The notes under the pieces are model-generated. The model saw only the letters and a list, made by a program, of their open reading frames with translations, ran no database searches and had not been told where the DNA came from. Positions 16,637-30,593 of a DNA stretch of 33,035 bases are shown one piece after another (within the stretch, counting starts at the first letter, position 1; the number at the start of each line of letters is the position of its first letter). The position numbers and the translations under genes are program-made. The stretch comes from Candidatus Uhrbacteria bacterium (GTDB lineage Bacteria; Patescibacteriota; Patescibacteriia; UBA9934; GWF2-40-263): contig JABITQ010000025.1 of the NCBI GenBank assembly GCA_018700535.1, forward strand, positions 1-33,035, in the 5' to 3' direction.

Positions 16637-17602
16637 CTAGTGTTCTTCGTCTCCTTGCACCTGTTTGGCCAGCAATCGATCAAACCTCGCTGAGAGCTCG
16701 GGAGATCCGGCACGAAACGAGCTGGCCATACAACGAAAGACAACAATGCTCACCCCATCAGCAACCAGAGCCTCCAAGCGATCAGACCAATCACCCACCA
16801 ACAAATCCCTGATCCTTCGCAAGGTATCAAGCAACCACGGATGCTTTTCTCGCGCTGAGCTAGAAACTGCCCACTGAAACAAAGTCCAGGTGTGTTCAAT
16901 ATTTCTGTTTGTAAGCACCTCAAGGATCCCGATCTGACACGATCTGTCTTTCACCTTCATGCTCATCATCTGCTGAACAAACTGGTCAACCTGCTCCGCA
17001 CGCATCACATTGATCAACTCAACGATTATGGCGCCATCACGCTCAGCATCTTCGTAAGATACAAGTCCAGTGAAAGTTTCCCTGAAAAGCTCGGACGCGT
17101 AATCAAGCACATCATCAGACTCAAGCCTGCTGATCATGTACCTGCGAGTCTCGTCGTCGAGGTTGCCGGTGTTGATCCGCTTGAGCATGACCGAGCTCGA
17201 GGCACACACATCGACAAACTGCTTCATGAGTTCAAAGTGCATGCTTCCACCAGCAATCACCGCTTCGACACTGGCATCATCTTGCAAAATGTATGATCCG
17301 TGAATCGCCAACGTGGCGAGCCTGAAATCATCGTCTGATGATTTCATCCACTCAGGATGTGTCACACAAGCCTCAGCGAGAACGAGTCCGCTCTCGTTGC
17401 GACCACTCTGACTAGTCACGCGCAACCCTGCAGATACACGAACTTCCCGCAGGTCACCATCAATCCTTTCACGGACGTACAAGTCGACATCCCCCACACG
17501 ATGATCACGGCCGTACACAATTGCGGCATAGGGCGTTTCAGCCCCGACAACCACAACGCTATTTTGACCAAACACCACTGCACGAAATCCTTCACTACCC
17601 AT
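16637..17602 (-). CDS. Hypothetical protein, paralog of 24122-24928 (321 aa)
   Basis: Shared motifs with 24122 product (LKRIN..LDDETRRYMIS..VLDYASELF vs LRRIK..LDQETRQCMIS..VVKYAAELF). Confidence 0.8.
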   Translation of the reverse strand: MGSEGFRAVVFGQNSVVVVGAETPYAAIVYGRDHRVGDVDLYVRERIDGDLREVRVSAGLRVTSQSGRNESGLVLAEACVTHPEWMKSSDDDFRLATLAIHGSYILQDDASVEAVIAGGSMHFELMKQFVDVCASSSVMLKRINTGNLDDETRRYMISRLESDDVLDYASELFRETFTGLVSYEDAERDGAIIVELINVMRAEQVDQFVQQMMSMKVKDRSCQIGILEVLTNRNIEHTWTLFQWAVSSSAREKHPWLLDTLRRIRDLLVGDWSDRLEALVADGVSIVVFRCMASSFRAGSPELSARFDRLLAKQVQGDEEH

Positions 17603-18106: not shown

Positions 18107-20371
18107 CTATAGCTCAAACGCCCCAGCATCACACACCCCAAACCGCCCAAAAGATCGCTGGTCAGCAGTTACCACTACTCCACTTACATCCGTGCAATCC
18201 GCCGCTGGGATCATATCAACTGCCGCTGAACTGCGTCGAAGTGCGTGAGTTTTGGTTGGGCCACCGTTGTGTCCGAGTGACTTCATGTTTGCACTTACAC
18301 CAAACAAATCTCCGTTTACGACACTGACATTACAACCGGCATACTCATTAATAATCGAGTACCCCAACGTATTCACAACTCCAGATGATGCATAGCAATC
18401 AGCCATTCCTGTGCCTCCGTCACGGTTTTGATCCATAACCACTGCTTTGAGGTCTACGTTTGAAGTTCTGTGTCCAAAATATCCTCCTCCACTTCCTCCA
18501 CTATATATTCCCAACAGGTTCGACTCGTTCTCAGCAATTGTTACAAACGAGAGTGTGGCGTTAGAACCATTATAGATCCCGCCCCCAAGTTTACCTGCTG
18601 TGTTGCCGCTAATTGTTGTGTTCAAGGCAACAAGCTGAACATCACTGTGCACACCACCACCAAATTGCCCCGATGCATTGTGACTGATCTCAGAGTTGGT
18701 AATACTTAATTCGTTTTTATTGTATACCCCACCTCCGTAATTACTAACAGCGTTATTTCCAAAAATCGCCGCTGTATCAATTGTTACATACGCCAGACTT
18801 GAAGTAGATACTCCACCACCACTCACAGCAGCAATGTTGCCACCAATGGTTACGTCAGAAAGCGAATGTGTTCCGTTCCCAAGGGCAAGTCCCCCACCAT
18901 AATACCCAGATACATTTCCTGAAAAATCTGAGTTCTCAACTTCTGACAAACCACTAAGCGCTGCACCTCCACCTGAAGACGTTGCTGAGTTTCCGACAAA
19001 GACTGAGTCTACGATTCGCACAGAAGAGTACGCTCCGCTTTGCACTCCTCCACCACCGCGCGAACGATTTGCATCAAATACCAAACGTTCCAAAACAGTT
19101 CTCCCTGAACCTGCGAGCAAAATCCCTCCCCCAGGACCAACAGATTGGTTTCCTTTAAACATGGTATCTCGAATTGAGCCGGTGGATGCGCTTGAAATTG
19201 CTCCACCACCAATAGGCCCTGCTGCCACATTGTCTCTAAATTCAGAGTTGAATACCTGCATCTGATTAAAGATGTCTTGATAAATCGCTCCACCATTAAG
19301 TGACTCGTTGTGAGCGAATACAGAATTGTCGATATTTAACTCGGCAGCAGAAAAGATTGCTCCTCCTTTAGCCACAGAAATGTTTCGATCAAAATACACG
19401 CGCTCAAAATTTCCAACAGATGACGAGGACATCAGTGTGATCGCAGCTCCAGAACCCAACCTCGACACATTGTCCTGAAAGAATGAATCCCGAACATCGA
19501 CTCCTCCACGACCTACACGCAAACCTCCACCTCCACCTGCGGAGTTCATTCTGAATCCGCTATATGCAACATCAAGCGTGGCGTCTTCGTTGTAAACAGC
19601 CCCACCAGAACCAGTTGCATTGTTGCTTGTAAAATCTGTCTGCGTGATTGTGATCGATCCAAAATCTCCTCGGATCGCTCCACCATCATCAGACGCATTA
19701 TTAAACTCAAATTGACTTGCAACAATATCAACGACACCACCATTGTTAAAGATAGCTCCCCCATCTCCATAAGCAGAATTATATTCAAACATCGAATTGC
19801 TGACTGAAAGGTTACCTGTGTTCGCAACACCTCCACCCACACCAGGAACTCCAGCTGACCACATGGCCATGTTTCGCGCCACGACAACTGAATCAAGAAC
19901 GAGATCTCCGTTGTTCAAAACACCTGCACCAAATTCAGTACGTCCGTTTTGAATTGTCATGTCCTGAAGAATCAACGACGCACCTGGATGCACTTCAAAT
20001 GCTCTGTCTAAATATGACGCATCGATCGCCACGTTCCTAGATCCGTTACCAACAATACGTAGTGACCCCGTTGTATCCGTAATATCAAAATCTTTATACT
20101 CTTCATCTGTCGCACCACTTGTTAAGAGCACACGATACAATCCATCGTGTTTAAACGTAATAATGTCATCACCTGGGTTTGCATTCGCTTCCCGAATCGC
20201 AGACCTAAGTGTGCACCCATTCAAATTACAGGGCCACAGTTGATCTTGATACATCGTCACCTCATACGTTGCCGCACTTACTCCCTGGGCAAAAATAAAA
20301 GATCCAAGTAAAAGGATCGGGATAACAACGAATAAACTTAGGCGAGACACTGTGTGGTTGATCAACATCAT
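18107..20371 (-). CDS. Secreted parallel beta-helix protein, choice-of-anchor Q / PMP-repeat-like (754 aa)
   Basis: Signal peptide; CTLRSAIREANANPGDDIITF; many GGG(A/V)xxN repeats; C-terminal LGHNGGPTKTHAL..SAAVDMIPAADC..DQRSFGRFGVCDAGAFEL. Confidence 0.88.
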   Translation of the reverse strand: MMLINHTVSRLSLFVVIPILLLGSFIFAQGVSAATYEVTMYQDQLWPCNLNGCTLRSAIREANANPGDDIITFKHDGLYRVLLTSGATDEEYKDFDITDTTGSLRIVGNGSRNVAIDASYLDRAFEVHPGASLILQDMTIQNGRTEFGAGVLNNGDLVLDSVVVARNMAMWSAGVPGVGGGVANTGNLSVSNSMFEYNSAYGDGGAIFNNGGVVDIVASQFEFNNASDDGGAIRGDFGSITITQTDFTSNNATGSGGAVYNEDATLDVAYSGFRMNSAGGGGGLRVGRGGVDVRDSFFQDNVSRLGSGAAITLMSSSSVGNFERVYFDRNISVAKGGAIFSAAELNIDNSVFAHNESLNGGAIYQDIFNQMQVFNSEFRDNVAAGPIGGGAISSASTGSIRDTMFKGNQSVGPGGGILLAGSGRTVLERLVFDANRSRGGGGVQSGAYSSVRIVDSVFVGNSATSSGGGAALSGLSEVENSDFSGNVSGYYGGGLALGNGTHSLSDVTIGGNIAAVSGGGVSTSSLAYVTIDTAAIFGNNAVSNYGGGVYNKNELSITNSEISHNASGQFGGGVHSDVQLVALNTTISGNTAGKLGGGIYNGSNATLSFVTIAENESNLLGIYSGGSGGGYFGHRTSNVDLKAVVMDQNRDGGTGMADCYASSGVVNTLGYSIINEYAGCNVSVVNGDLFGVSANMKSLGHNGGPTKTHALRRSSAAVDMIPAADCTDVSGVVVTADQRSFGRFGVCDAGAFEL

Positions 20372-20558: not shown

Positions 20559-21062
20559 CTAGTCACCTGTTGTGTGAGAACGATGCCCCCAACGCTCAAC
20601 CACCTTGGCTAGAAATGCTTCCCCCTTCTCAAGCATTGGTGCATCGCGTGTCGACACGTTGTCAGGAAGCCGAGCGCGGAGGAACCTTTGCTCAAACTGC
20701 TCAGTGACTTCTCTTGGAAGAGTGATGAACATCTCCTCGAGTCTCCTTGCATTCCTAGCTCGAAGCTCCATTGGGTAATCTGGATCGATGGCCCCTACAA
20801 AGAAGATGAGGAAGGTTCTCTGGTGATAATGCTTCAGCATCAAATACTTGAGTGGATCGTAGGGATGCTCGCCAGGCTCATCCACTGTGATGGTATCGGC
20901 AGGTTGAAGCCACATTCGAACATATGCATTGTCTCTGGTGGAAGGTGCTGTTTCAACCTTGCCATCAACCACCTCAAATAAATGAATCACGCCGTCGCGT
21001 TCTCGAACCGCCGCTCGACAAGCTCTTTCGTTGAACATTCCAATTCGACCTTGAACACTCAT
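20559..21062 (-). CDS. Hypothetical protein (167 aa)
   Basis: TTGGAGGCATTC-ATG at 21062; promoter at 21085-21113. Confidence 0.75.
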   Translation of the reverse strand: MSVQGRIGMFNERACRAAVRERDGVIHLFEVVDGKVETAPSTRDNAYVRMWLQPADTITVDEPGEHPYDPLKYLMLKHYHQRTFLIFFVGAIDPDYPMELRARNARRLEEMFITLPREVTEQFEQRFLRARLPDNVSTRDAPMLEKGEAFLAKVVERWGHRSHTTGD

Positions 21063-21084
21063 GAATGCCTCCAATTGGACTTAG

Positions 21085-21162: not shown

Positions 21163-21218
21163 GACTTGTCATTTCATTTGACCCGCTTAGCTGAGGTTAG
21201 CTGAGGCTGGAGGCGCAC

Positions 21219-21893
21219 ATGCCCCTTATTGTTGGCATGAACATTCATGATTCTGCTGAGGTCGAGTGGCGAACAGCGTTAGGTGACGTGATCGAAAAGT
21301 TCACCATGTGGTTTTGGGGACTCAAGACCGACGACGTGACCTGCTTCTTTGCGCACGACCCATCAGTGCCCCCTGGCGCCGTTGCAACCTTCACCGTCGA
21401 GCTGTTGTTCAACAAAGACGGTAGATCATCCGAGCGACGCCATCAGTTCTCAAAGGAGCTTGGTGAGAAGCTTGAGATAGCCGTCCGCGAGATCCGCTGC
21501 AGACTTGATGACAAGCCCCCGAGCGACCTCGAAGCCGTACGTGTCGAGGTTGCCTGCAAGCCCTTTGACCACGAACACAATGGGTTCTACATCACACCAA
21601 AGCCCGACGAGACCAGCTCTGAAGATACCGAGCTTATCCAGTCTCTCTCAAAACGACTTGATCAACTGGAGATCACTCCACGTACACTCAAATGTCTGGC
21701 AGAATTCAAGCGCGCCAATCTGGTCTATGTCTGGCAGTTGGCACAGATGACTGAATCAGAGGCATTGAAAATTCCAGACTTTGGCAAAAAGTCGAAGAAC
21801 GAGATGATAGAGATTCTCGCCCAGATGGAATTGCGCTTTGGCATGAGTCTTCATGACATGCGCGATCAGCTCCCATCCACCCCCGAAGATTGA
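21219..21893 (+). CDS. Orphan protein with C-terminal RNA polymerase alpha-CTD-like domain (224 aa)
   Basis: LDQLEITPRTLKCLAEFKRANLVYVWQLAQMTESEALKIPDFGKKSKNEMIEILAQMELRFGMSL aligns to RpoA CTD; GGAGG SD. Confidence 0.85.
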   Translation: MPLIVGMNIHDSAEVEWRTALGDVIEKFTMWFWGLKTDDVTCFFAHDPSVPPGAVATFTVELLFNKDGRSSERRHQFSKELGEKLEIAVREIRCRLDDKPPSDLEAVRVEVACKPFDHEHNGFYITPKPDETSSEDTELIQSLSKRLDQLEITPRTLKCLAEFKRANLVYVWQLAQMTESEALKIPDFGKKSKNEMIEILAQMELRFGMSLHDMRDQLPSTPED

Positions 21894-21900
21894 CCTAGCT

Positions 21901-21938
21901 ACGGCCGTTCACCATCTGGTGGGCGGCTCTTTTGTTTA
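21901..21938 (+). terminator. Terminator GCCGttCACCA..TGGTGggCGGC + TTTTGTTT
   Basis: Inverted repeat plus T-tract. Confidence 0.8.
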
Positions 21939-24121: not shown

Positions 24122-24928
24122 CTAGAGGTTCAATCCGTCTCTGATCGACTCGACCGACATGCCTCCACGCTCCGAGAGTGCTTTGAACAATTCGGACGTT
24201 TGCGAAGGATCGCTAGGGAGGCGCCCTGCCATTTGGTCCATGAACTCGATGACGCTCTTTCGCGTCATGACCTTGATCAGCTCCAACATGAGTGTAAGGA
24301 ACCTCCTCAGATCATATGGGTCAAGCGCCCCATCGTTGATGCCATACCTCACTTGAAACAGCTCTGCCGCATACTTCACAACAGCTTCCTGAGAAAGCGC
24401 GCTGATCATGCATTGACGAGTCTCCTGATCGAGCTTTCTTGTATCTGCTCGTCTGACCGGCACACTTGCTTTTATTCGTCGAAGCAAGACATCACCCGCT
24501 CCTTCGCCAAGGCGATTGATGAAGGGCTCCATGAACACGAAGTCCATATTCCCATTCAAAACCACCCGCTCATTCGAGTCTTCCAAATATTCTTCAACAT
24601 GCCAGCTGATGAAAGAGCTGACGTCTGCCACATGACTGGCCATCGCTTCAGCGTCGACGAAATCGTCAATACTTGGATTCAGCCAACCGGCCTTGATGTC
24701 ACAGGCAGCGACAACGACTAGACCACCAAGACCTGTCCATTTGGTCGCCACCACACCAGCACCTGCAGGCACACGAGCCGCAACCAACTTGCTGCGAACA
24801 ACCCGTTTGATGAACAGATCGCTGTCTCCCGCCTTGTAGTGTTCAGGAGTCACGATCCCTGCATAGGGCTTGTTATCACCCTCAGTGATTATGACAACAA
24901 AATTTCGATTGAATACAGCAGAACTCAT
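24122..24928 (-). CDS. Hypothetical protein, paralog of 16637-17602 (268 aa)
   Basis: Protein motifs and 5' leader shared with 17602 gene. Confidence 0.8.
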   Translation of the reverse strand: MSSAVFNRNFVVIITEGDNKPYAGIVTPEHYKAGDSDLFIKRVVRSKLVAARVPAGAGVVATKWTGLGGLVVVAACDIKAGWLNPSIDDFVDAEAMASHVADVSSFISWHVEEYLEDSNERVVLNGNMDFVFMEPFINRLGEGAGDVLLRRIKASVPVRRADTRKLDQETRQCMISALSQEAVVKYAAELFQVRYGINDGALDPYDLRRFLTLMLELIKVMTRKSVIEFMDQMAGRLPSDPSQTSELFKALSERGGMSVESIRDGLNL

Positions 24929-24995
24929 CACCAACTCCGAGCTTGTGGAAGATCCACGTTTTGAGATTCACTTGCCTATTGAAAGAACACGGGGA

Positions 24996-25125: not shown

Positions 25126-26244
25126 ATGAGTGAGTCATTCGTTAAAAGCGTTGTGCGAGTTGGTGTTTTCCCTGGCAACAAACCTGGATTCTTCGGAGTC
25201 GTGACAGAGTGGGGCCAAAACACGGCAATGGTTCGACGTTTTGCCAGCGACGGTGCTGATGAGCACATCTCTGTGCCAAGAGCTACGGTGAGCATACAGA
25301 TGCTGCCCGGTGCTGGGCCACAAAGTGTCCTTTTCAATCACCTCACTTCCAAAGATGAGCACCTGGCAACTTTGAGCAGGCCAGAGGTGATCGTCACGTT
25401 AGCTGAACGCACCAAGCTCCTTACGCACCGTGAAAAAATGGAAGCAGTGATCCTTGCCGACGTTGTCAGACCGATCACGCTTGCGTTGATGGAAAAGATC
25501 AAGAATCCTGAACTGCGCCTTTGGGTACTCATAGACCCGCGAGTGAGCGATCTGGCATTGCACATGGCGGAAACTGCGAGCAAGGCAGAACTCTGCAATG
25601 CATCAATCAGGATGTACGGAGAATGTGTCAATGACAACGTGCAGCACCCCCACTGCTTCACAAGACTGAATACGTTTCTGGATTCGTTAAGATTCGAACC
25701 AGCTGAGCTGGAAAGGTTCTTCGCAACCGTGACAGTAGCTCCGGGCTCGGAAGACGTACACAATACCTGGGTGCGTTGCATGACAACAGGTCTGGCTCTC
25801 ACGTACTGCCGCTACCTTCAGCGCACCGGCGGTTCTCTTCCAGCACGTCTCCATGTTCTAGACGTTCATCTGCCGAGAACTGAAGAGGTGCGTAAAGTTC
25901 CGCTGACACCTGAACTGCTGTCCGGAATCCTCACTGACGATGCACCGATTGAAGTGATCCAGATGGTGCGCTATGGAATGACCCGGGATGCAGCGGTCAA
26001 GTTCCTGACGAGCAGTGACGCACGCGTCAATCTTGTCATGAGACTGACGGCCCTGTTGTTCTTGAGCAAACAAGCATTCTTCGACAGATGTCTATTAGAA
26101 CTACGAACGGTCATGAGCCCCATGGTTGCCCAAGCGGTAATCACTGCCGGGGACGCACATGCCAACCACGACGTGTTTGCGTATGGCGTGGATAAGCTCA
26201 GGGTTGAGTTTCAAAATCAGGCTTCACAACCTCCCTCCGAATAA
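25126..26244 (+). CDS. Hypothetical all-helical-looking protein, tandem paralog 1 (372 aa)
   Basis: Homologous to 26489-27595 over full length (VPRAT(V/M)SI; LR(L/F)WVL.DP.V.DLA..M; LTDDAPIEVI). Confidence 0.85.
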   Translation: MSESFVKSVVRVGVFPGNKPGFFGVVTEWGQNTAMVRRFASDGADEHISVPRATVSIQMLPGAGPQSVLFNHLTSKDEHLATLSRPEVIVTLAERTKLLTHREKMEAVILADVVRPITLALMEKIKNPELRLWVLIDPRVSDLALHMAETASKAELCNASIRMYGECVNDNVQHPHCFTRLNTFLDSLRFEPAELERFFATVTVAPGSEDVHNTWVRCMTTGLALTYCRYLQRTGGSLPARLHVLDVHLPRTEEVRKVPLTPELLSGILTDDAPIEVIQMVRYGMTRDAAVKFLTSSDARVNLVMRLTALLFLSKQAFFDRCLLELRTVMSPMVAQAVITAGDAHANHDVFAYGVDKLRVEFQNQASQPPSE

Positions 26245-26488: not shown

Positions 26489-27595
26489 ATGAGTGAAGTA
26501 TACACAGCACTCGCAACTACCACTGTGCTCATTGGGGATTCACCCAGTGGCAACCCCGACTTTTTCGGACAAGTGGTGGAGATCGACAGCATGTCGGCGT
26601 TGGTAAGCTGCATCATCTCCGATGGTGAATACCAGCTTGTATCTGTGCCAAGAGCAACAATGAGCATCAGGGTGATGGGTAGTGGAGGAAGTAGGCACAC
26701 ACTCTTTCACCACCTCACCAACAAAGGCTCTCATCTCAATACCCTGAAAGATCCGACCGTGATCACAAAGCTGGCCAAGAAGACTGGTCTGTTGGATGAT
26801 CGTGAGATGATGGAAGCAGTGTTGATCGCCGACGTATTGGACGTGGTTACACTTGCTCTGCTGAATGCCATCACAGATCCAGACCTGCGCTTTTGGGTAC
26901 TGACAGACCCAAGTGTAGATGACTTGGCTGCAGACATGAGAGGCATCGCGAGTAAACAAGAGGTTTGTGACGCAGCCATCAAACTCTACGAACAACTCGA
27001 TGGTGAACTCATAGGTAGGCCCCCCATCTACAAAACACTTCTCGCGTGCCTGCGCACAGTAGTGGAAGATCAAGATGAGATGGTGAGGTTTATCGAAACC
27101 GTCGTAGACTTTCAAGATTCGGAAATCATTCACAATGCCGTTGTGCGTGGCATGGATGAGAATCTTGCCTTGAGGTGCTACACATGTCTTCAGGCCAGTG
27201 GCAGCTCTCTGCAAACACGTCTGCTCATTCTGGAACACCATCTACCAACCATGGAAATTACAAGCCATGAAGCACTTGCTGTATTCCTTACCGATGACGC
27301 ACCAATCGAGGTGATCATCGCAGCTGCTGAGAAGATGAATCACCAAGTATCCTATTTGATCGTGTTGGATAAACAATCTACTTCTATCATGAGGATGGCA
27401 GCTCTATGGAGACTCAGCAAGTTTGAAAATCACCCAGAATTCCTCGTTGCCGCACACAAAAAGATGAGCCCTGAACTTCTCCAGGAAGCATTCGCAACTG
27501 TGGAAACACATGCCAATAGCGGTGTGTTTGCTGATGTAATAGCAACACTCAAGATCATGTCTGAAGCCCAGGCTTCAGACCCACCCTCCGCATAA
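26489..27595 (+). CDS. Hypothetical all-helical-looking protein, tandem paralog 2 (368 aa)
   Basis: Full-length homolog of 25126-26244. Confidence 0.85.
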   Translation: MSEVYTALATTTVLIGDSPSGNPDFFGQVVEIDSMSALVSCIISDGEYQLVSVPRATMSIRVMGSGGSRHTLFHHLTNKGSHLNTLKDPTVITKLAKKTGLLDDREMMEAVLIADVLDVVTLALLNAITDPDLRFWVLTDPSVDDLAADMRGIASKQEVCDAAIKLYEQLDGELIGRPPIYKTLLACLRTVVEDQDEMVRFIETVVDFQDSEIIHNAVVRGMDENLALRCYTCLQASGSSLQTRLLILEHHLPTMEITSHEALAVFLTDDAPIEVIIAAAEKMNHQVSYLIVLDKQSTSIMRMAALWRLSKFENHPEFLVAAHKKMSPELLQEAFATVETHANSGVFADVIATLKIMSEAQASDPPSA

Positions 27596-29294: not shown

Positions 29295-30593
29295 TTATTC
29301 CCAACCTTCTCCTTGTCGCACCAGCAAATCATCAGCACGCAATGGCTCTGCCATTAAGTCCTTCACCACACGCTCCATGCGAGCACTTTGTGAACCCTTC
29401 ACCAACACAACATCGCCTTTATTAATCTCTCGATCAAGCCAACGCCCAGCCTCTACGGAATTTGTAAAATGATGCGTTTCTGTTTCAGGAATCCCCGCCT
29501 CAATCGCAGCACGACGCAAATCTTGCGCCATCTCCCCCACGGTCACAAGCACATCCACACCAACCTCTGCGGCATACATCCCGATCATACGATGCTCGTC
29601 CTCGGTGTACTGCCCAAGCTCAGCCATGTACCCAAGCGCAGCAATGCGTCGTGAGCTTTCTGCTGGAGAAAATTCTGCGAGCACATCGAGTGCTGCTTTC
29701 ATTGATGCTGGAGCTGCATTGTAACTTGAGTCGATAATGAGTGATCCTTTGATTCCAGCAAGTGGGTTCATGCGCCCAGGCTCGAACGTGATATCTGGAA
29801 TACCAGCCAAGATCTGCTCATTGCTCAACCCAAGGTGACGCGCAACGACGACTGCCGGAAGCACAGATGATGCACCGGAGCGCCCAAGAACATTTTCTAG
29901 TTGGATAACGAGAGGGTCGTGACTCTCTGCTTCTGTCGTGACAGACAGTGTTGAGAATACTTCCCCAGGCTCAAATGAGAAATCTTCTCTCGTATCTAAT
30001 GTGTAAGCAGTTGCCTGCAAATCAGCATTGGTTTGAAATCCATACGTGACGACAGGTGCAGATGCATGCTCTGTTAACCCCATCACCAACGAATCGTCGG
30101 CATTCATAACGCACAACCCTTCGCTGTCAGTCGCAGAGAGGATCTCTGCCTTTTCCTCCGCGAGTTGCTCAACAGATCGAAAGTACTCAGCGTGCACAGG
30201 AGAGATTCGTGTCAGCACACTCACTGAAGGTTTTGCCACATCTGTGAGATAGCTCATGTCGCCAGGGTGATCAACAGCGTATTCAAGAACAAATACCTCT
30301 GGCACGTTTATTGGTTTCATCAAGAGAATTCTGAGCCAACCAAGCACGGACTTACCAGGAGATGGTGCACCTAAAATAGTAAGCGGGACACCAAACTCGT
30401 TGTTGTAGTTTTTGTAGGTAGATCGCACGGTGTACTTTTCAGCCAAAACAGTAGCGATTGCATTGCGGGCGGAAGTCTTTCCGACAGACCCTGTCACAGC
30501 AACGATAATCGGTTTGTGCTCGGCAATAAGCTTTTGCGCTTTCTTTTTAATCTGTTTTTTGATGAAGTCTTTCATATCATTGTTATTCAACAC
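29295..30593 (-). CDS. murF: UDP-N-acetylmuramoyl-tripeptide--D-alanyl-D-alanine ligase (Mur ligase)
   Basis: VAVTGSVGKTSARNAI, YKNYNNEFGVPLT, IIDSSYNAAPASMKAAL, YMAELG; start may be 30575. Confidence 0.92.
   Translation of the reverse strand: MLNNNDMKDFIKKQIKKKAQKLIAEHKPIIVAVTGSVGKTSARNAIATVLAEKYTVRSTYKNYNNEFGVPLTILGAPSPGKSVLGWLRILLMKPINVPEVFVLEYAVDHPGDMSYLTDVAKPSVSVLTRISPVHAEYFRSVEQLAEEKAEILSATDSEGLCVMNADDSLVMGLTEHASAPVVTYGFQTNADLQATAYTLDTREDFSFEPGEVFSTLSVTTEAESHDPLVIQLENVLGRSGASSVLPAVVVARHLGLSNEQILAGIPDITFEPGRMNPLAGIKGSLIIDSSYNAAPASMKAALDVLAEFSPAESSRRIAALGYMAELGQYTEDEHRMIGMYAAEVGVDVLVTVGEMAQDLRRAAIEAGIPETETHHFTNSVEAGRWLDREINKGDVVLVKGSQSARMERVVKDLMAEPLRADDLLVRQGEGWE

What the first reader, a model, noticed from the sequence alone, without database searches (positions are those of the whole stretch)
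21219..21893. Orphan protein carrying an RNA polymerase alpha-CTD-like domain
Residues about 145-212 (LDQLEITPRTLKCLAEFKRANLVYVWQLAQMTESEALKIPDFGKKSKNEMIEILAQMELRFGMSL) align without large gaps to E. coli RpoA CTD ([62 protein letters not shown]). Equivalents of the UP-element-binding residues R265, C269, G296, K298, S299 and E302 are retained; N268 is K. The N-terminal ~140 aa is not the RpoA assembly domain and matches nothing I recognise. It could be a regulator that binds UP elements or sigma/activators independently of core RNAP, or an alpha-CTD decoy.
Basis: partly seen in the sequence, partly recalled or inferred. Interest (0 to 1): 0.72.

Follow-up and report, generated by a model that had tools for sequence, protein, structure and literature searches.

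The report
Stray RNA-polymerase alpha-tail domain on another protein
In a group of tiny bacteria whose RNA polymerase has lost the DNA-gripping tail of its alpha subunit, this protein carries such a tail as a separate piece; related genomes carry the same tail on several other unrelated proteins, so it looks like a promoter-reading part that has come loose from the polymerase and been reused.

Summary
Confirmed: window 21219-21893 (+) encodes a 224-aa protein whose C-terminal third is a true RNA polymerase alpha-CTD (PF03118 E=7e-13; all 43 significant PDB hits are RpoA). DNA-contact residues R265, C269, G296, K298, S299 and E302 are kept; N268 is K. The N-terminal ~130 aa match nothing.

The single rpoA of this Uhrbacteria-like genome (248 aa) ends after the alpha-NTD, 3 bases before rplQ, and this protein carries the genome's only alpha-CTD. 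RpoA lacks the CTD in all 91 of 96 relatives where it was found. Most of the phylum outside the class (200 of 220 sampled) has the domain, normally in RpoA-length frames.

It is not simply a split rpoA. The N-terminus is not RpoA, the gene is far from rpoA, the sister species lacks it, and free alpha-CTDs resemble proteobacterial ones more than Patescibacteria RpoA ones. In 28 of 96 relatives alpha-CTDs sit on other proteins: sigma-region-4 regulators, tandem alpha-CTDs, one FtsK.

Best reading: a trans-acting DNA-binding, probably regulatory, protein using a detached alpha-CTD as minor-groove reader. Function is inferred, not shown. Loss of the CTD in Parcubacteria is already published; I found no report of its redistribution.

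The parts
21209..21213 (+). Shine-Dalgarno-like GGAGG, 5 bases before the ATG
   Evidence: sequence read directly
21219..21893 (+). gene of 224 aa: unknown N-terminal domain + alpha-CTD
   Evidence: ORF list; only PF03118 match in the genome
21219..21593 (+). N-terminal domain, residues 1-125, no detectable relatives; low-confidence model suggests alternating strands and helices
   Evidence: no Pfam/PDB match, no NTD match in 96 relatives nor in its own genome; AF2 without alignment, pLDDT 44
21594..21641 (+). acidic, Pro/Ser-rich linker, residues 126-141 (TPKPDETSSEDTELIQ)
   Evidence: sequence read directly; inference from composition
21642..21851 (+). RNA polymerase alpha-CTD domain, residues 142-211; R265, C269, G296, K298, S299, E302 kept, N268K; 3-residue insertion after L270
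   Evidence: PF03118 E=7e-13; PDB RpoA matches; residue table
21852..21890 (+). C-terminal tail with MRDQLP, matched by VRDHLP and IRDQLP in two other free alpha-CTD proteins (L016, L022)
   Evidence: sequences side by side; blastp of target to the L016 protein 46% over 85 aa including the tail
21903..21938 (+). terminator-like hairpin and T-rich tail after the gene (11 pairs)
   Evidence: 1 found, 1.3 expected by chance; position right after the stop codon

Best explanation
The gene encodes an accessory DNA-binding, probably regulatory, protein of a Uhrbacteria-like bacterium. Shown: its C-terminal domain is a genuine RNA polymerase alpha-CTD; the organism's own RNAP alpha subunit has no such domain; relatives carry similar alpha-CTDs on several unrelated proteins. 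Inferred: the alpha-CTD is a detached DNA reader that binds AT-rich minor groove through R265, G296, K298, S299 and E302, while the unknown N-terminal domain dimerises, binds a partner or senses something and so positions the protein at promoters or other DNA sites. The domain probably came from a proteobacterial-type RpoA and was spread by domain fusion within the class, after or together with the loss of the RpoA CTD. It would act in trans, not as an RNAP subunit.
For: alpha-CTD identity E=7e-13, no rival family. Six of seven classical DNA-contact residues kept; across free alpha-CTDs R265 is kept in 33 of 36 domain hits, G296 in 32, E302 in 29 (two of the 36 are repeats of the same protein). 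Only alpha-CTD in the genome. RpoA 248 aa, alpha-NTD only, followed by rplQ 3 bases later. None of the 91 RpoA found in 96 relatives carries a CTD match; 57 named RpoA loci of Uhrbacteria, Falkowbacteria and Magasanikbacteria end likewise, 227-296 aa. In the phylum sample the domain is found in 6 of 20 class members and 200 of 220 others, typically in frames of 303-376 aa on the rpoA contig. In relatives the domain is fused to sigma-70 region 4 regulators homologous over ~400 aa across families, which points to DNA or promoter reading. Most free alpha-CTDs (22 of 31) score best against Caulobacter or E. coli alpha-CTD; 5 of 31 score best against a Patescibacteria RpoA CTD. UP-element minor-groove binding by alpha-CTD: PMC2613000; R265: PMC3828302; free alpha-CTD binding promoter DNA and forming a complex with Spx in EMSA: PMC2801614.
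Against: No biochemical data. N268 (DNA contact) is K, N294 is D, and there is a 3-residue insertion between helices 1 and 2. The primary sigma of this genome has L at the R603 position, so the D259/E261-R603 contact of E. coli (PMC5511352) is not available; D259 is Q in the target. The N-terminal domain is an ORFan without a usable structure model, so its role is a guess. The other genome of the genus lacks any alpha-CTD, so the protein is dispensable to the lineage. One relative has an alpha-CTD on FtsK, so the domain need not mean transcription.
Confidence: 0.55

Rival explanations
1. Detached alpha-CTD as a general DNA tether with no role in transcription: the domain supplies AT-rich or nonspecific DNA binding to a protein of other function (DNA handling, defence, chromosome organisation).
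For: alpha-CTD appended to an FtsK translocase in G037; no shared gene neighbourhood among the carriers; sigma R603 contact residue absent in the genome's primary sigma.
Against: Much of the repertoire is fused to sigma region 4, which fits promoter work; the target's neighbours give no hint of a DNA-processing operon.
Confidence: 0.27
2. Split rpoA: the CTD was cut off the genome's own alpha subunit and now works as a separate RNAP piece.
For: rpoA lacks the CTD and this is the only alpha-CTD in the genome.
Against: N-terminal part is not RpoA; locus unlinked to rpoA (C27 against C66); absent in the sister species and in most relatives whose RpoA is equally short; free alpha-CTDs score nearer to Caulobacter and E. 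coli than to Patescibacteria RpoA CTDs; several copies per genome on different proteins in others.
Confidence: 0.06
3. Mimic aimed at a host: the domain resembles a proteobacterial alpha-CTD and could act on host RNAP or host activators as a decoy or effector.
For: Similarity to proteobacterial alpha-CTD; cultivated Patescibacteria live on other bacteria (PMC12206443).
Against: No secretion signal seen; the sigma-region-4 and FtsK fusions point to use inside the cell; hosts of Uhrbacteria unknown; similarity may only reflect where the domain was acquired.
Confidence: 0.05
4. Leftover of a mobile element or phage, with no current role.
For: Patchy distribution (28 of 96 relatives); ORFan neighbours around the gene.
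Against: Intact ORF, Shine-Dalgarno and terminator-like hairpin; no PHROG match; only one weak phage hit, to the alpha-CTD alone, E=4e-3; none in viral contigs.
Confidence: 0.07

Closest known systems
C-terminal domain of RNA polymerase alpha subunit (PF03118, RpoA alpha-CTD; E. coli, Caulobacter)
   Same: Domain family, most DNA-contact residues, the LGM-type end of the domain, acidic linker in front
   Different: Joined to a non-RpoA N-terminal domain, encoded away from rpoA, in a cell whose RpoA has no CTD; N268K, D259Q and a 3-residue insertion
Free alpha-CTD proteins of related Patescibacteria found here (L016, L022, L007, L056, L020; sigma-4 + alpha-CTD L004/L005/L010/L011)
   Same: Stand-alone alpha-CTD in a CTD-less-RpoA background; L016 and L022 share the R-D-x-L-P tail
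   Different: Their N-terminal parts (a short shared module, coiled coil, sigma region 4, FtsK) are not detectably related to that of the target
Loss of alpha-CTD in reduced genomes (Tremblaya, Hodgkinia, Parcubacteria, some plastids; PMC8321222)
   Same: RpoA reduced to its NTD
   Different: That paper reports loss only; here the same lineage carries the domain on other proteins
Spx-alpha-CTD complex of B. subtilis (PMC2801614)
   Same: A separate protein plus an alpha-CTD reading promoter DNA
   Different: There the alpha-CTD belongs to RNAP and the partner is separate; here the domain is fused to the partner

Membership tests
RNA polymerase alpha-CTD domain (PF03118) | profile score above curated cut-off | tested here: met
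   48.6 bits against 23.8
RNA polymerase alpha-CTD domain (PF03118) | DNA-contact residues R265, N268, C269, G296, K298, S299, E302 | tested here: met
   six of seven kept, N268 is K
RNA polymerase alpha-CTD domain (PF03118) | sigma-contact residues D259/E261 and a sigma R603 partner (a functional feature, not needed for domain membership) | tested here: not met
   D259 is Q, E261 kept; primary sigma has L at R603. Lowers classical UP/sigma function, not domain membership
RNA polymerase alpha-CTD domain (PF03118) | alpha-CTD fold | tested here: inconclusive
   AF2 without alignment gave pLDDT 60 and no meaningful Foldseek hit
RNA polymerase alpha-CTD domain (PF03118) | binds AT-rich DNA | not testable with these tools
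   needs EMSA
RpoA (alpha subunit) | alpha-NTD (assembly domain) present | tested here: not met
   no PF01000 in this protein; the genome's only one is at C66
RpoA (alpha subunit) | full-length rpoA model score | tested here: not met
   67 bits against cut-off 302 for the best model; other models likewise below
sigma region 4 + alpha-CTD regulators of the same class | sigma-70 region 4 before the alpha-CTD | tested here: not met
   no PF04545 in the target, present in L004, L010, L012, L021
short N-module + alpha-CTD proteins (L016, L022, L007, L056) | shared ~65-aa N-terminal module | tested here: not met
   profile of the four gives no hit to the target N-terminus
Tautomerase superfamily (considered for the N-terminus because of MP start and repeated strand-helix-strand pattern) | PF01361 match | tested here: not met
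   no match at E<=10; family absent from 145 genomes of the phylum

The most novel reading that the evidence does not exclude
In this class of Patescibacteria the alpha-CTD function has been moved off RNA polymerase: the core enzyme keeps only the alpha-NTD, and promoter-upstream reading is done in trans by an assortment of separate proteins (this one, sigma-region-4 + alpha-CTD regulators, tandem alpha-CTD proteins), re-founded from a horizontally acquired proteobacterial-type alpha-CTD.
Probability: 0.25. Interest if true: 0.75.

Novelty: new variant of a known kind. Interest (0 to 1): 0.55.

Why it matters
The alpha-CTD is the textbook contact between bacterial RNAP, UP elements and activators, and it is almost always discussed as a part of RpoA. 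A lineage that lost it from RpoA yet carries it on regulators and even a DNA translocase shows that the domain is a portable DNA reader, and it gives a natural system for asking what the alpha-CTD can do away from the polymerase. It also bears on how tiny-genome bacteria regulate transcription with a stripped-down RNAP.

Tried and rejected
Structure of the whole protein and of the CTD by AF2 without an alignment: pLDDT 44 and 60, Foldseek without a significant hit. The N-terminal model drew weak ferredoxin-like matches, which I do not rely on. Tautomerase idea for the N-terminus: no profile match and the family is absent from the phylum sample. Shared N-terminal module with L016/L022/L007/L056: those four resemble each other (leave-one-out clear for three, marginal for L022) but not the target. 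Close relatives by pattern scan: none in GTDB genomes or viral contigs. Phages: one weak hit, to the alpha-CTD only. Conserved neighbourhood: none. Split rpoA: see rivals. An HMM seeded with the target was used only to cut out domains, not as evidence of homology. Literature: nothing found on free alpha-CTD proteins in Patescibacteria; only open-access papers are held, so an earlier report may exist.

Full report
OBSERVATION. The ORF at window 21219-21893 (+) is real: ATG start, GGAGG five bases upstream, 224 codons, terminator-like hairpin at 21903-21928. It is flanked by a divergent ORFan gene (20559-21074, -) and a separate gene from 22058, so it is probably monocistronic. Residues 137-201 match Pfam RNA_pol_A_CTD (48.6 bits, E=7e-13, cut-off 23.8) and nothing else at E<=1. 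NCBIfam gives only rpoA models, matching their C-terminal part, best E=9.8e-19, and all 43 PDB hits better than 0.1 are RpoA, the best being the Caulobacter-type alpha-CTD (one search names 9pfq, which shares the 7ye1 sequence, as C. crescentus RNAP). This is far from chance and is specific to alpha-CTD rather than to helix-hairpin-helix domains in general.

THE GENOME'S OWN RPOA. The window lies in a 1.03-Mb, 98.6%-complete genome. Its single rpoA (contig C66, L002 1270-2016, -) encodes 248 aa and ends after the alpha-NTD with an acidic tail; rplQ starts 3 bases later, so there is no room for a CTD. The target is the only PF03118 match in the genome. RpoA relatives with names are Candidatus Uhrbacteria (closest 84% identity), Falkowbacteria and Magasanikbacteria; from general knowledge these belong to class ABY1 of the Patescibacteria in GTDB. 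Of 96 relatives, 91 have RpoA and none has an alpha-CTD attached (frames at most 312 aa and no PF03118 hit at the rpoA places). In 57 named loci RpoA ends at 227-296 aa (one further locus is cut off by the contig end). In a sample of 240 genomes across the phylum, 200 of 220 outside the class but only 6 of 20 inside have the domain; in the listed cases outside the class it normally sits a few hundred bases downstream of the NTD match, in a frame of 303-376 aa. So the loss from RpoA is characteristic of the class, while most of the phylum kept the CTD. Loss of the alpha-CTD in Parcubacteria is mentioned in PMC8321222, so this part is not new.

FREE ALPHA-CTDS. In 28 of 96 relatives PF03118 occurs on other proteins, read out. 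Types: (a) N-terminal region + sigma-70 region 4 + alpha-CTD (L004, L010, L012 and L021 by Pfam; L005, L008, L011, L013, L028 by eye), of which L155, L156, L161 and L162 are homologous over about 400 aa, across families; (b) tandem alpha-CTDs (L007, L020); (c) a short ~65-aa N-module + alpha-CTD (L016, L022, and in longer form L007, L056); (d) FtsK with an alpha-CTD after its gamma domain (L006); (e) others, including the target. The two other short proteins L016 and L022 share with the target a tail after the domain (MRDQLP, VRDHLP, IRDQLP), beyond the canonical alpha-CTD. The carriers have no common gene neighbourhood. Presence is patchy, and the other genome of the same genus has none.

ORIGIN. 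Pairwise scores put 22 of 31 free alpha-CTDs nearest to Caulobacter or E. coli RpoA, and only 5 nearest to a Patescibacteria RpoA CTD; for the target the scores are 144 against 83. The RpoA-attached Patescibacteria CTDs mostly have A at 269 and often A at 299, whereas the free ones mostly have C and S. A FastTree tree on ~60 columns agrees in outline but is too short to be strong, and the reference set is small. I read this as acquisition from a proteobacterial-type source followed by fusion and spread, more likely than splitting of the class's own rpoA.

MECHANISM. Established: alpha-CTD binds UP-element minor groove (PMC2613000; R265 in PMC3828302), free alpha-CTD can bind promoter DNA and form a complex with a regulator (PMC2801614), and E. 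coli D259/E261 touch sigma R603 (PMC5511352). Shown here: the target keeps most of the DNA face, but the primary sigma of this genome has L at the R603 position (L165) and D259 is Q. Inferred: the protein is a DNA-minor-groove reader acting in trans, with the unknown N-terminal domain giving dimerisation or partner choice; the classical alpha-CTD/sigma handshake is unlikely. Whether the target sites are promoters is open; the abundance of sigma-region-4 fusions among its cousins favours promoters, the FtsK fusion warns that the domain can be used as a plain DNA tether.

WHAT COULD NOT BE SETTLED. The N-terminal domain has no relatives in Pfam, PDB, its own genome, 96 relatives, or the scanned collections, and AF2 without an alignment gave unusable models. 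Selection and expression could not be tested because no close homologue exists. That the window contig belongs to this lineage is supported by its peptidoglycan gene at 29295-30593, whose best matches are 65% and 64% in two genomes of the same family.

VERDICT. Observation confirmed; interpretation partly supported. The finding is better described as one member of a set of detached alpha-CTD proteins in a bacterial class whose RNA polymerase lost the domain. New variant of a known kind; interest 0.55.

Noticed in passing
L126, L138, L139 (RpoA tails; named Patescibacteria/Falkowbacteria records): RpoA of some class members ends in KKKRGRPKK, an AT-hook core, and others in Lys-rich tails (L123-L125, L127, L129, L132): the lost alpha-CTD may have been replaced by another minor-groove binder on RpoA itself.
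   Followed up: partly
L158 1187-3664 (-), G037 contig C19: A full FtsK translocase (alpha, motor, gamma domains) with an alpha-CTD appended after the gamma domain.
   Followed up: partly
L004, L005, L010, L011, L012 and L155/L156/L161/L162: A family of regulators with N-terminal region, sigma-70 region 4 and alpha-CTD, conserved over ~400 aa across families of the class.
   Followed up: partly
L165 (primary sigma of the window's genome): Primary sigma region 4 ends ALEKIQANPLIEKLRDY, with L where E. [quoted passage not shown]
   Followed up: partly
window 25126-26244 and 26489-27595 (+); 16637-17602 and 24122-24934 (-): Two pairs of paralogous ORFan proteins (40% and 32% identity) around the target in a region of genes without Pfam matches.
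   Followed up: no
window 18107-20371 (-): 754-aa exported-looking protein with Chlamydia polymorphic membrane protein (PMP) repeats.
   Followed up: no
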